Origin: a virus
Reading direction: 5' to 3' (one strand)
Length of the DNA stretch: 64,000 nucleotides
Virus record (IMG/VR): IMGVR_UViG_3300035698_004130
Coordinates: 38,678 to 102,677 of that record
Below the pieces are notes generated by a model that had not been told where the DNA came from, did no database searches, and saw nothing but the letters and a program-made list of their open reading frames with translations. The translations under genes were made by a program, and so were the position numbers. Below are positions 56,816 through 61,000 of this stretch, one piece after another; the first letter of the stretch is position 1; the number at the start of each line of letters is the position of its first letter.

Positions 56816-57760
56816 ATGTCTATTGTGAACTCTTCTTTTATTAGGACTTACTGTTTAGGTAGGTTTACTGATAATTATAGGCTCTCCAACTGTGAGATGG
56901 AGTTAGTAATTCCATCTATTTTCCTCGATGACGACTACAATCGGCACATGTCCATCAATTTGGAGAATGGATTGTGGAGATGCTTTAAGACTGGAAATGT
57001 GGGAAACTTTCCAAAACTCATTTCAATCCTTGAGAAGTGCAGCTACAGAACTGCCTACGAGAGATTTGTATTTGAGAACCTTCTCATTGAGAATGTTCCA
57101 GATGAACCTGAAAAGGTAATCGCAACCACAGATATTGAGGACACAACTAAGTTCACCCTGCTTGAGGAGAATCATCCGTTCATTGTATCAAGGATGTTGG
57201 AGGGATCTAGGTTCTATATCTCGGACGAAGGATTTTATGCGGGAAGGCTGATTATCCCGTTCTTCAATTCCGCAGGGAAACTTTTCTACTTCCAAGCAAG
57301 GAGTATCAATGGCCGACAGCCCAAATATCTCAATTGCCGGTCTCTAAAAAGTTCTCAGGTGCTCTACCCGTTCAATTACGAGTCCTATGAACCCCTGTAT
57401 ATCACTGAAGGAGTGTTCGACTGCCTAAGTTTGCGTGCAGTTGGCCTAAATGCGACTACTACTCTATCCTGCGAAACCTCCAAGGAACAGATGGAGCAGT
57501 TGAGGCATTATCAAGGTCCACTAGTAAACGCCTTTGATAATGATGAGGCAGGAAGAAGGGGAACTAGAAAGTTCATGACGATTGCCCACAACTACAATCG
57601 AACTGATCTCAAGTTCATTCATCCTCCGGGATCATTTAAGGATTGGAATGAGATCCTGTTGAAGGAAGGACCGGATGAACTTATTAGTATCACCCGGAAC
57701 GTTAGCACTCTTGATGCAATGATGCTAGAGATTAACGAATTACAAATCCAAGATCATTAG
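56816..57760 (+). CDS. 61: DNA primase (DnaG-type TOPRIM, T4 gp61-like)
   Basis: Makes RNA primers for the lagging strand. Residues 20-60 are a reduced zinc-binding domain (Cys26, His44, Cys56 in GLWRCFKTG). Residues 140-260 hold the RNA-polymerase and TOPRIM core: GRLIIPFFNSAG, YITEGVFDCLSL (Glu188) and NAFDNDEAGRRG (Asp231, Asp233). Length 314 is close to T4 gp61 (342). Partner of the DnaB-type helicase at the other end of the window. It is on the plus strand; its end overlaps the next minus gene by 29 bases. Confidence 0.92.
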   Translation: MSIVNSSFIRTYCLGRFTDNYRLSNCEMELVIPSIFLDDDYNRHMSINLENGLWRCFKTGNVGNFPKLISILEKCSYRTAYERFVFENLLIENVPDEPEKVIATTDIEDTTKFTLLEENHPFIVSRMLEGSRFYISDEGFYAGRLIIPFFNSAGKLFYFQARSINGRQPKYLNCRSLKSSQVLYPFNYESYEPLYITEGVFDCLSLRAVGLNATTTLSCETSKEQMEQLRHYQGPLVNAFDNDEAGRRGTRKFMTIAHNYNRTDLKFIHPPGSFKDWNEILLKEGPDELISITRNVSTLDAMMLEINELQIQDH

Positions 57761-58667
57761 AATATATGATTTGGTCTAGAGCGTTAAACTTCAGCCTCAC
57801 AATGTAAGACCCTCTTTGGGAACCGAATGTTCCGTCCAGCATACTTGGATGGGTTGCAAGAAGACTTGTATCAAAGTTGTAGATAACAGTGTTTCCGGCA
57901 GTAACGTTACATAGTGATGACGTTGCAGCGAATCCTGATACAGTTACTCGTGATGCTAGGTTGCGATCGTCGTTAAGTTTGATGATCTCAATAGCAGGAT
58001 CAATCACCAGGGACTGCTTGAAGAGGTTGGTGATGCTTCTATCAATGTTTGCATTCTCCAGAGTAACCTCATTGGTTAGTCTAATATCCACCTTAGATCC
58101 AAGAACGATGTGGTTGTTCGCTAGTTTAGTGCTAACATGGAATAGGAGTGGTTCGGTTACTGTGAAGAACCTGTCCTCAGTAAGAGAAAACTCATTAATG
58201 AGTGTATCAAGGTCTGACCCAGCTTTTCGTCTAACAGTCCAAACATCGAGGTAGTTTCCAATTGCTGAAACCCTATTCTCGATTGGATTATCCGCAGATA
58301 GATTAAACACCGCTGAAGCAGCAGCCGTATCCAGAACTGTGGCATAGACGCCTTCAGAGATTCTGTAGATACCAGAGGCTCCCGCACTGTAGTTTGAGGC
58401 ATTGAAACCAATGTCATTAATGTCAGCGGATCCCGAGGGAGCAAAGTGCATTAGAACCACACTGGAGAAATCACTGTCGATCTCCCCATCATTGGTTACT
58501 ACTGAGCTAGGAGCCCAGTTACTCTCTGCTGCAAAAATACTCACACCACTAATTTCATAGGGATCGGTATACTGCCCATCATTAATGAAGTAAGTAACGA
58601 GCGCAGTCTTCCCTAGAACAGAGGGTCTGTTGTGTCTGGTATCAACTGAGGTGGTGTTAATAATCAT
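57732..58667 (-). CDS. hypothetical virion protein
   Basis: A 311-residue beta-rich protein starting MIINTTSVDTRHNRPS, without recognised domains. The start ATG overlaps, as TAATG, the stop of the -1-frame extension of the gp26-like gene, so it belongs to that late transcript. Probably structural or baseplate-related by sequence style (Ser/Thr/Asn/Ala-rich strands). Confidence 0.7.
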   Translation of the reverse strand: MIINTTSVDTRHNRPSVLGKTALVTYFINDGQYTDPYEISGVSIFAAESNWAPSSVVTNDGEIDSDFSSVVLMHFAPSGSADINDIGFNASNYSAGASGIYRISEGVYATVLDTAAASAVFNLSADNPIENRVSAIGNYLDVWTVRRKAGSDLDTLINEFSLTEDRFFTVTEPLLFHVSTKLANNHIVLGSKVDIRLTNEVTLENANIDRSITNLFKQSLVIDPAIEIIKLNDDRNLASRVTVSGFAATSSLCNVTAGNTVIYNFDTSLLATHPSMLDGTFGSQRGSYIVRLKFNALDQIIYSNDLGFVIR

Positions 58668-58837
58668 TATTCGTCCTGAGATTGTTTGATATCATCGGAG
58701 TAGAATTTCATGAAGCTCATCCTTTCGATCTTCGTCATTTTCTTAACATCCGAGTATGCAAATTTGATCTTATTTACTAATATGTAGGCTTCGAGAAGCA
58801 ACTCATCTAAGGTTAAACTTTCTTCTAACTCACTGAA
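58667..58837 (-). CDS. -1-frame extension of the gp26-like chaperone
   Basis: Fifty-six codons plus stop without an own start: FSELEESLTLDELLLEAYIL and further to QSQDE. It is reached only by a -1 slip on U UUU UUU (58843-58837) just before the zero-frame stop. Leucine/glutamate-rich helix, like the C-terminal extensions of tail-assembly chaperones. Its stop overlaps the next ATG (TAATG), which indicates that the frame is translated. Confidence 0.7.
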   Translation of the reverse strand, partial: FSELEESLTLDELLLEAYILVNKIKFAYSDVKKMTKIERMSFMKFYSDDIKQSQDE

Positions 58838-59586
58838 AAAAAATGTGCATCAAGCGGAACGTTTAGAACCTCAATGTGCTTACAGGTAGGGCACTCAAAG
58901 TTGAACCTGGGATCTACACCATAATCATTCTTTAGAATAGCATTTGAGATTGTTTTCATATCTCGGATAGCAAGCCTCTTTAGCACCGCATTTATGAACA
59001 CAGGGTCCGTAGTATCAGCAATACTCACCACAAATCTATGAAGATTCTTAATTATGGTGTCAACATCCGAAAGGTAGTTTTCTTCAATTACTCTTGGGAA
59101 CCTTACCTTCACATCCACATCTAGAGTTGGGAGTCTAATGATTCTTGGGTCTTCTAGCTCATCTTCAACATATGTGATATCCAGGTGCTTTGCGATATCA
59201 ATTGTGGTGGTAACACCCGCTCCACACTTTGGGCACGAGATTGGGAAGTTATACTCAGCCCCATAGCTAATCTCCCTAACCTTCATCAGCAGGAAGATCT
59301 TGTCGAATAGGACAACTGACTCAATTGGGATACCATCTACACACTTTCTAAGGATGCCATTGACCGCATCGACTCCACGGTTGCTAGTGGATAAGATCCG
59401 TTGCTCATCCTCAAACAGAAGTGGCTTCACTCTAACCCCATTGAAGTTTTCATAAAATTTACCTTTTGAAGGTAGCTGAACTTCAACTTCAACTTCCTTT
59501 GGCACGTTAGCGAATAGAGCTTCAATAGCATCTTCTCTGCTAATTGGGGTTGAGTTTTTTGGCGTAATGTCTGTTATTTTGTCCAT
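58825..59586 (-). CDS. 26: baseplate hub assembly chaperone, T4 gp26-like
   Basis: A 253-residue protein of the T4 baseplate-protein (gp26) family: EVQLPSKGKFYENF at 34-47 parallels the LPSTGKxxxYRPF start, then LLFEDEQRILS, IFLLMKVREISYG. Two CxxC pairs (CPKCG, CPTCK) suggest a zinc ribbon. It is needed for hub assembly, not part of the virion in T4. The last codons pass a run of eight U, and a -1 slip would give a 306-residue fusion. AGGA six bases before ATG. Confidence 0.82.
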   Translation of the reverse strand: MDKITDITPKNSTPISREDAIEALFANVPKEVEVEVQLPSKGKFYENFNGVRVKPLLFEDEQRILSTSNRGVDAVNGILRKCVDGIPIESVVLFDKIFLLMKVREISYGAEYNFPISCPKCGAGVTTTIDIAKHLDITYVEDELEDPRIIRLPTLDVDVKVRFPRVIEENYLSDVDTIIKNLHRFVVSIADTTDPVFINAVLKRLAIRDMKTISNAILKNDYGVDPRFNFECPTCKHIEVLNVPLDAHFFSVS

Positions 59587-59617: not shown

Positions 59618-61000
59618 ATGGAGATTCAAGTAGGCAATTTAACTTCCGTAGTAAAAACGGATAACCCGGATATCCTAAAAGGGCTTCATAATAAGTATGG
59701 CTTCTTTGTGCCAGGGTATCAGTATGCTACTTCTTACAGGAAAAGAAGGTGGGATGGTAAGAAAAGATACTTCAAGTTAAGTGGCACTTTCAAGACAGGA
59801 TTATTAAAAAGAATTCTAAAAGATCTTGATACCATAGGTTGCAAAGATACTCTTATCACAACTGACATTAAGGGTTTAGATGCTAAGGCAAAAAGGATAA
59901 AGGGATTTACCTACCGCAAATACCAAAAGGATGCAATTACCTACTGCCTTGAAAATCTTAGATGTCTGGTTAGCTCCCCAACTGGATCAGGAAAAACCCT
60001 AATCATGGCTGGGATCATCCATTCCCTACAGACTATAGACCCAGACCTAAAAGTGATTATCCTGTTTAAGGAGAAAGGAGTCTTAAAGCAAACTTACGAC
60101 TTCTTCAAGGGATGTGCTGTTAAGAACGTTGGGGTAAACTCTGGCGAAGGATACACAGAGGGGAACATCATGCTTTCCACTGTCCAAAGCATTGATAGGA
60201 TTCTGGATACTCACCTGGATGATGCAACCGTGCTTATGGTCGATGAGGTCCACCAGTTTGGCTCAGGAGAGACAACGATAGCCGCCATTGAGTCTTTTCC
60301 TAACGCAGTGTATAGGTTTGGCTTCACAGCTACAGTCCCTCAGGAAAAGTCTGAGAGCGTCAATGCGAGGATGACACTTGAGGGAGCTTTCGGTTCTGTC
60401 TTCACTACGAGAACTATGGAGGAGCTTATTGATGATGGCAGTCTTGCTCGGCCTATTATCCAGATTGTTCACCACGAGGACTTTGTGGATGAAGATCAAA
60501 CCTACCTTGAAATCTACGATCAGGCGATTGTTAATTCTGAAAGCCGTAATAACAAGGTTCTAAGCATCGTTAATCAGGTGTATTCAACTAACAAGAGTGC
60601 TAAGGTCCTAATCCTTGTAAAGAACATTCAACATATTAGAAACCTTGAAGCCTTAATTAAGGGTGTTGCTGTTGTTGAGGGGGATACCTCTCTCGAAGAT
60701 CGCTATAGGGTAATTAACAAATTCATTGAAGCAAAGGGCAACGCAACAATTATTGGAACCAAGGTTATGCAAACTGGTATTAGCATTGATGAGATTACCC
60801 ACATGATCGACGCTCGGTGTATGAAGGGAGAGATTCCCGTTATCCAAGGGCTTGGTAGAGGGGTGAGAAAAGAGAAGGGAGTCGCAGTAGTTTATTACTA
60901 CGACTTCTATGACACCGTGAAATACCTAAATAAGCACTCAAAGAGTAGACTCAAGCACTACAAAAACCTAAACCTAGAAATTAACTATGTCAAAATCTAA
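59618..61000 (+). CDS. uvsW: UvsW-like superfamily 2 DNA helicase
   Basis: A 460-residue SF2 helicase that remodels recombination intermediates and removes R-loops, helping the switch to recombination-dependent replication. An N-terminal domain (GLHNKYGFFVPGYQYATSYR, read in parts) matches UvsW. Motifs: SPTGSGKT (Lys127), MVDEVH (Asp209-His212), FGFTATVP, VIGTKVMQTGIS-type segment and QGLGRGVRK with arginine fingers. T4 UvsW has 503 residues. Confidence 0.93.
   Translation: MEIQVGNLTSVVKTDNPDILKGLHNKYGFFVPGYQYATSYRKRRWDGKKRYFKLSGTFKTGLLKRILKDLDTIGCKDTLITTDIKGLDAKAKRIKGFTYRKYQKDAITYCLENLRCLVSSPTGSGKTLIMAGIIHSLQTIDPDLKVIILFKEKGVLKQTYDFFKGCAVKNVGVNSGEGYTEGNIMLSTVQSIDRILDTHLDDATVLMVDEVHQFGSGETTIAAIESFPNAVYRFGFTATVPQEKSESVNARMTLEGAFGSVFTTRTMEELIDDGSLARPIIQIVHHEDFVDEDQTYLEIYDQAIVNSESRNNKVLSIVNQVYSTNKSAKVLILVKNIQHIRNLEALIKGVAVVEGDTSLEDRYRVINKFIEAKGNATIIGTKVMQTGISIDEITHMIDARCMKGEIPVIQGLGRGVRKEKGVAVVYYYDFYDTVKYLNKHSKSRLKHYKNLNLEINYVKI

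What the first reader, a model, noticed from the sequence alone, without database searches (positions are those of the whole stretch)
58667..59586. Likely programmed -1 frameshift in the gp26-like chaperone gene
Zero frame reads CAU UUU UUU UCA and stops three codons later. A -1 slip on U UUU UUU opens 56 codons, Leu/Glu-rich, ending TAATG on the next gene. Tail-assembly chaperones of many phages use such shifts (lambda G/GT, P2 E/E'), but I do not know one described for a gp26-type hub chaperone.
Basis: partly seen in the sequence, partly recalled or inferred. Interest (0 to 1): 0.75.

Follow-up and report, generated by a model that had tools for sequence, protein, structure and literature searches.

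The report
Frameshift-made phage tail assembly chaperone
A T4-like phage appears to make a short and a long form of its tail-assembly helper protein from one gene by letting some ribosomes slip back one base; the slip site is kept across very divergent relatives, but this device has already been described for T4-like phages, so it is a well-supported new example and not a new system.

Summary
The gp26-like gene (59586-58825, minus strand) ends CAU UUU UUU UCA GUG AGU UAG; a -1 slip on U_UUU_UUU adds 56 residues ending in TAATG. In 85 of 85 examined loci (80 kept of 255 found, 4 others, the window) an in-frame U_UUU_UUY sits near the gp26 stop and a complete -1 ORF follows. All 57 representatives keep NNU UUU UUY; 51 have no AUG/GUG in the first 22 -1 codons. 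The extension is homologous to cyanophage gp51 (-1 frame behind the same heptamer in 79 of 80), which matches the C-terminus of T4 gp51. T4 gp26 and gp51 are paralogues: a short and a long form. The predicted gp26 fold aligns best, at modest Z, with YqbN and HK97's tail assembly chaperone. So this is a G/GT-type chaperone pair. Verdict: new member of a known kind. Side lead: six other gp26-family phages or contigs carry the extension in the +1 frame. No product has been measured.

The parts
58825..59586 (-). Zero-frame product: gp26-like short chaperone form (TAC-N), 253 aa
   Evidence: PF12322 T4_baseplate E 2.5e-20, phrog_150 baseplate hub E 3.3e-22; AlphaFold model mean pLDDT 85.9
58837..58843 (-). 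Slippery heptamer U_UUU_UUU (within an 8-T run 58836-58843)
   Evidence: In-frame U_UUU_UUY in 85 of 85 loci near the gp26 stop; 57 of 57 representatives
58665..58837 (-). -1 frame extension, 56 codons plus TAA: gp51-like C-terminal domain (TAC-C); the long product would be 250+56 = 306 aa
   Evidence: Complete -1 ORF in 85 of 85; profile matches to cyanophage gp51
58825..58827 (-). Zero-frame stop UAG, three codons after the heptamer (same spacing in 70 of 85 loci)
58663..58667 (-). TAATG: stop of the extension overlapping the start of the next gene
   Evidence: TAATG at this place in 4 of 85 loci, so the overlap itself is not generally kept
57732..58667 (-). Next gene, 311 aa, function unknown; follows the extension in the relatives too
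   Evidence: tblastn match in 76 of 80 relatives

Best explanation
[quoted passage not shown] Most ribosomes stop at UAG 58827-58825 and make the short form, TAC-N (253 aa, gp26-like). A minority, with tRNA-Phe in both sites on UUU UUU, slip back one base on U_UUU_UUU and read 56 further codons, making the long form TAC-NC (306 aa), whose extra domain is gp51-like (TAC-C). By analogy with lambda G/GT, the common part would bind the tape measure protein and the extra domain would bring in tail tube or hub subunits; neither form is expected in the virion. Shown here by sequence: the site, the open -1 frame, their conservation, the homology of the extension with gp51 and of the main part with T4 gp26 and gp51. 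Inferred: that ribosomes slip, how often, and what the two products do.
For: 85 of 85 loci have in-frame U_UUU_UUY in the last 45 gp26 codons and a complete -1 ORF of 58-78 aa from the slip; they were found with peptide patterns from gp26 upstream of the site, not with the slip site. In 57 representatives the codon before Phe-Phe is NNU 57/57 and the first Phe codon UUU 57/57, against 69% and 73% elsewhere in the same genes; 0 of 5 other Phe-Phe pairs in these genes form the heptamer. The extension evolves as a protein in the -1 frame: pairwise identity by codon position 0.60/0.74/0.48 in 49 representatives. 51 of 57 have no AUG or GUG, and 37 of 57 none of AUG/GUG/UUG, in the first 22 -1 codons. 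The window-family profile finds cyanophage gp51 at E 1.2e-6 (best shuffle 0.26); the cyanophage profile finds T4 gp51 at 5.1e-5 (best shuffle 0.0068). Cyanophage set: heptamer in 79 of 80. T4 gp26 and gp51 both match PF12322 over its full length, E 8.8e-64 and 3.9e-52. Best alignments of the predicted model to solved structures: YqbN 3klu Z 6.5 and HK97 tail assembly chaperone 2ob9 Z 6.1, next row 3.7.
Against: No protein or reporter data. The window itself shows no stimulatory RNA structure: its downstream 60 nt fold less well than shuffles (z +0.97), although the family mean is -1.05 against -0.01 in control stretches; consensus folding found nothing shared. The loci are related, so 57 of 57 is not 57 independent events. 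Foldseek alone found no significant match (2ob9 E 1.8), and Z 6 is in the range that unrelated folds can reach (note). The tape measure gene of this phage was not identified, so the usual neighbourhood could not be confirmed. Of 25 other gp26 homologues, 6 have a -1 ORF without the classic heptamer and 6 have the extension in the +1 frame.
Confidence: 0.92

Rival explanations
1. Transcriptional slippage: RNA polymerase adds a U (or drops two) in the T run, giving some mRNAs with a shifted frame.
For: The window's run has 8 T, a length at which polymerase slippage becomes plausible (general knowledge).
Against: 37 of 57 representatives have NNT TTT TTC, a run of only 6 T ended by C, yet keep the layout. 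What is conserved is the in-phase heptamer, not run length.
Confidence: 0.05
2. Sequencing or assembly indel, or a broken gene: the true gene is one in-frame fusion.
For: A homopolymer is where indels occur; one cyanophage-type locus, L143, is an in-frame fusion without the heptamer.
Against: The two-frame layout is in 85 of 85 and 79 of 80 loci from many assemblies, including isolate genomes P-SSM4, Atu_ph07 and XacN1.
Confidence: 0.01
3. The extension is a separate gene (gp51) started on its own, by reinitiation after the gp26 stop.
For: Cyanophage gp51 is annotated as its own gene with an ATG; 56 of 77 have ATG as the sixth -1 codon. L190 has a -1 ORF with an ATG and no heptamer.
Against: In the window's family 51 of 57 have no AUG/GUG before the conserved block; in the window the first ATG is -1 codon 36, inside the domain, and the only earlier candidate is a UUG at codon 15. 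It does not explain the conservation of NNU UUU UUY.
Confidence: 0.04

Closest known systems
Tail assembly chaperones of T4-like phages (TAC-N / TAC-NC; Vladimirov, Gautam & Davidson 2022, Virology 566:9)
   Same: gp26-type protein, poly-T slip site at its 3' end, long form with an extra C-terminal domain. What I saw of that paper: its title and statements in two citing papers (passages); the rest is recalled.
   Different: This is a divergent lineage: 30-43% identity to its nearest relatives found, 19-21% to cyanophage P-SSM4 gp26 and T4 gp26/gp51. I could not check whether that paper covers it.
Phage T4 gp26 and gp51
   Same: Both T4 proteins are PF12322 members; gp51 carries the extra C-terminal domain.
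   Different: T4 uses two genes for the short and long forms; here one gene and a slip site.
Lambda G/GT and P2 E/E'
   Same: Short protein plus -1 frameshifted long form from one gene, for tail assembly (review PMC5009743, passages).
   Different: Different slip heptamer (lambda's recalled as GGGAAAG); no sequence comparison with lambda or P2 was made here, the link rests on layout and on the weak fold match to HK97's chaperone.
GTTTTT frameshift of Vandenendeviridae/Andersonviridae (phage Adele, PMC12846349)
   Same: Poly-T -1 slip at the end of TAC-N with an open -1 frame in all genomes they looked at (passage).
   Different: Not compared by sequence here.

Membership tests
gp26 / T4_baseplate (PF12322) | Match to the family profile above its cut-off over most of its length | tested here: met
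   73.6 bits, cut-off 24.5, positions 3-209 of 219
Frameshifted tail assembly chaperone (G/GT type; T4-like TAC) | Conserved in-frame slippery heptamer near the end of the short form | tested here: met
   85 of 85 loci; 57 of 57 representatives
Frameshifted tail assembly chaperone (G/GT type; T4-like TAC) | Overlapping ORF in the shifted frame, without an evident start of its own, conserved as protein | tested here: met
   Complete -1 ORF in 85 of 85; no AUG/GUG early in 51 of 57, and codon-position pattern
Frameshifted tail assembly chaperone (G/GT type; T4-like TAC) | Extension homologous to that of the T4 group (gp51) | tested here: met
   Window-family profile to cyanophage gp51 E 1.2e-6; cyanophage profile to T4 gp51 5.1e-5; the window-family profile alone does not reach T4 gp51 (E 2.1)
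Frameshifted tail assembly chaperone (G/GT type; T4-like TAC) | TAC-N fold | tested here: inconclusive
   Top two rows 3klu (YqbN) Z 6.5, rmsd 3.2, 78 aligned and 2ob9 (HK97 TAC) Z 6.1, rmsd 3.0, 70 aligned, next 3.7; Z below 8, and Foldseek E 1.8
Frameshifted tail assembly chaperone (G/GT type; T4-like TAC) | Gene lies by the tape measure gene (usual, though not so in T4) | tested here: inconclusive
   Tape measure gene not identified by profile; the next gene is a 311-aa unknown. In LIS04 the next big gene is annotated tape measure, in SP-15 putative tail protein
Frameshifted tail assembly chaperone (G/GT type; T4-like TAC) | Both products made, at a set ratio, absent from virions | not testable with these tools
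   Needs a reporter or proteomics

The most novel reading that the evidence does not exclude
The gp26/gp51 chaperone pair is one family that is decoded in at least four ways: -1 slip (window, cyanophages, some jumbo phages), +1 slip on UUU_N at the same Phe-Phe site (SP-15, LIS04, Streptococcus GXN1, Microcystis Mel-JY01, LR756508, L189), in-frame fusion (L143) and two separate genes (T4). The direction of slippage would have switched within one gene while the Phe-Phe site stayed in place.
Probability: 0.4. Interest if true: 0.5.

Novelty: new member of a known kind. Interest (0 to 1): 0.33.

Why it matters
It corrects annotation (the long form is missed or cut short in public records), gives a clean comparative case for the chaperone pair of T4-like phages, and supports the view that T4's separate genes 26 and 51 do the job that one slippery gene does in relatives. 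The possible switch between -1 and +1 slippage inside one family would be a useful test bed for how recoding evolves.

Tried and rejected
Single-protein scan of viral contigs with the window protein found nothing; an alignment of four distant homologues did. A shared downstream RNA structure: consensus folding gave none; some relatives have hairpins starting about 8 nt after the heptamer (e.g. L023, L030, L058), the window's own fold there is no better than shuffles. A sequence search of solved structures with the gp26 alignment gave only chance hits. Pfam and PHROGs give nothing for the 56-aa extension on its own. Profile-profile comparison of the window-family extension with the jumbo-phage extension was weak (probability 27.5), and jumbo against cyanophage gave nothing (0.4), so homology of the extension is shown only between the window-family, cyanophage and T4 forms; the jumbo profile instead finds the +1 extensions. 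Paper searches for prior reports. Rows dropped before counts: 28 of 85 loci as 90% or more alike; 8 jumbo-type loci of the 57 for the codon-position and folding work, and L074 as well for the consensus fold; 3 of 80 cyanophage loci without site or without the full extension.

Full report
What is there. The window lies in a 102,677-base virus record with T4-type genes: tail sheath, major head protein, head maturation protease, baseplate wedge, sheath stabilizer, a UvsW-like helicase, SbcC-like and ribonucleotide reductase genes. On the minus strand, 59586-58825 encodes a 253-aa protein of the gp26 family (PF12322, E 2.5e-20; phrog_150 baseplate hub). It ends GAU GCA CAU UUU UUU UCA GUG AGU UAG. 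The -1 frame runs on for 56 codons to TAA at 58667-58665.

Conservation of the site. Relatives were collected with peptide patterns from gp26 itself, upstream of the site: 80 kept of 255 confirmed, 3 of 3 and 1 of 1 from bacterial assemblies; with the window, 85. All 85 have in-frame U_UUU_UUY in the last 45 codons, and all have a complete -1 ORF, 58-78 aa counted from the slip. In 70 of 85 the zero-frame stop is three codons after the heptamer. After removing sequences 90% or more alike, 57 remain: NNU before Phe-Phe in 57, UUU as the first Phe codon in 57; elsewhere in the same genes NNU is 1961 of 2851 two-fold codons and UUU 294 of 405 Phe codons, and none of 5 other Phe-Phe pairs makes the heptamer. 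The sequences share ancestry, so I give no probability.

The extension is a translated domain without an evident start of its own. For 49 representatives (the 57 less 8 jumbo-type loci) identity by -1 codon position is 0.60, 0.74, 0.48, the pattern of a coding frame. 51 of 57 have no AUG or GUG and 37 of 57 no AUG/GUG/UUG in the first 22 codons. In the window the only early candidate is a UUG at codon 15; the first AUG is at codon 36.

What the extension is. In cyanophage P-SSM4 the gene after gp26 is the 61-aa gp51, 'baseplate hub assembly catalyst', in the -1 frame. In a set of 80 loci found with P-SSM4 gp26 (the best 80 of at least 600), 79 have the heptamer; 77 have a complete extension within the locus. 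The window-family extension profile hits cyanophage gp51 at E 1.2e-6 in a set of 987 sequences that includes 20 shuffles of each (best shuffle 0.26); the leading Phe-Phe is part of both and may help a little. The cyanophage profile hits T4 gp51 at 5.1e-5 (best shuffle 0.0068), while the window-family profile does not reach T4 gp51 directly (E 2.1).

T4 explains the function. T4 gp26 (208 aa) and gp51 (249 aa) both match PF12322 over the whole profile, and gp51 alone has about 48 more residues at its end; its C-terminal part matches phrog_634, the cyanophage gp51 family. T4 thus has a short and a long form as two genes. Gp26 and gp51 are listed as hub assembly chaperones of T4 (PMC3004832, passages). 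An AlphaFold model of the window's short form (mean pLDDT 85.9) aligns best, among 601 chains that Foldseek ranked highest, with YqbN (3klu, Z 6.5; that YqbN is a phage tail chaperone is recalled) and with the HK97 tail assembly chaperone (2ob9, Z 6.1), the next row being 3.7. This is supportive, not proof.

Ribosome or polymerase. 37 of 57 representatives end the heptamer in C, which leaves a run of 6 T. A run that short does not favour polymerase slippage, and phase is conserved. Ribosomal -1 slippage is the best reading. The region 3' of the site folds somewhat better than shuffles across the family (mean z -1.05, control -0.01) but not in the window (+0.97), and no common structure was found.

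What is known. A 2016 review says G-T frameshifting is conserved in long tailed phages 'except T4' (PMC5009743, passage). In 2022 Vladimirov and colleagues identified the T4-like chaperones; I could not open that paper. PMC10274946 (passage) says that some T4-like phages carry one short and one long fused gene instead of frameshifting, and PMC12846349 (passage) says that poly-T slip signals are known in TAC-N genes of T4-like phages. The window is therefore a new member of a known kind.

Variation worth noting. Among 25 other homologues (L002-L009, L176-L192, with L002 and L007 also read), 12 have the -1 heptamer, 6 have a -1 ORF without it (L177-L179, L182, L183, L190), 6 have the extension in the +1 frame (L003, L004, L006, L008, L176, L189; L176 is SP-15 again) and one (L191) is cut off. 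A further +1 case is Microcystis phage Mel-JY01. At the Phe-Phe (or, in L006, Phe-Leu) site the +1 cases read UUU C, UUU U or, in LIS04, UUU A; the first two would let tRNA-Phe slip +1 and pair again (inference). The jumbo-phage extension profile, built from -1 loci, finds four of the +1 extensions (SP-15 1.9e-10, L189 4.3e-7, LIS04 2e-6, L006 2e-4; best shuffle 0.12). The one paper search made for it (SP-15 only) found no report.

Noticed in passing
L004 (SP-15), L003 (LIS04), L008 (GXN1), L006 (LR756508), L189, L193 (Mel-JY01): gp51-like extension lies in the +1 frame, open across the gp26 stop, with UUU_N at the Phe-Phe site: a candidate +1 version of the same recoding.
   Followed up: partly
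L011 (T4 genes 26 and 51): T4 gp26 and gp51 are paralogues, short and long forms of one chaperone.
   Followed up: yes
L004:3303-3422, L005:3397-3519: In SP-15 and Atu_ph07 the extension is annotated as a 39-40 aa ORF from an internal Met, which cuts the domain.
   Followed up: partly
L143:2001-2894: Cyanophage-type gp26 and gp51 fused in frame (297 aa), no heptamer; a real fusion or an indel, not resolved.
   Followed up: partly
L177-L179, L182, L183: -1 extension present but the site reads GTA AAT TTT TCA TAA, without the classic heptamer.
   Followed up: no
L012-L091, 3' end of gp26: In most of these loci the zero frame after the heptamer reads NNN GTG A(A/G)(C/T) stop; in the -1 frame the same bases code a kept Glu-Leu.
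   Followed up: no
window 57732-58667, 56816-57760, 59618-61000: The 311-aa unknown next to the extension has a match in 76 of 80 relatives, the 314-aa plus-strand gene in 65 of 80 and the UvsW-like gene in 70 of 80.
   Followed up: partly
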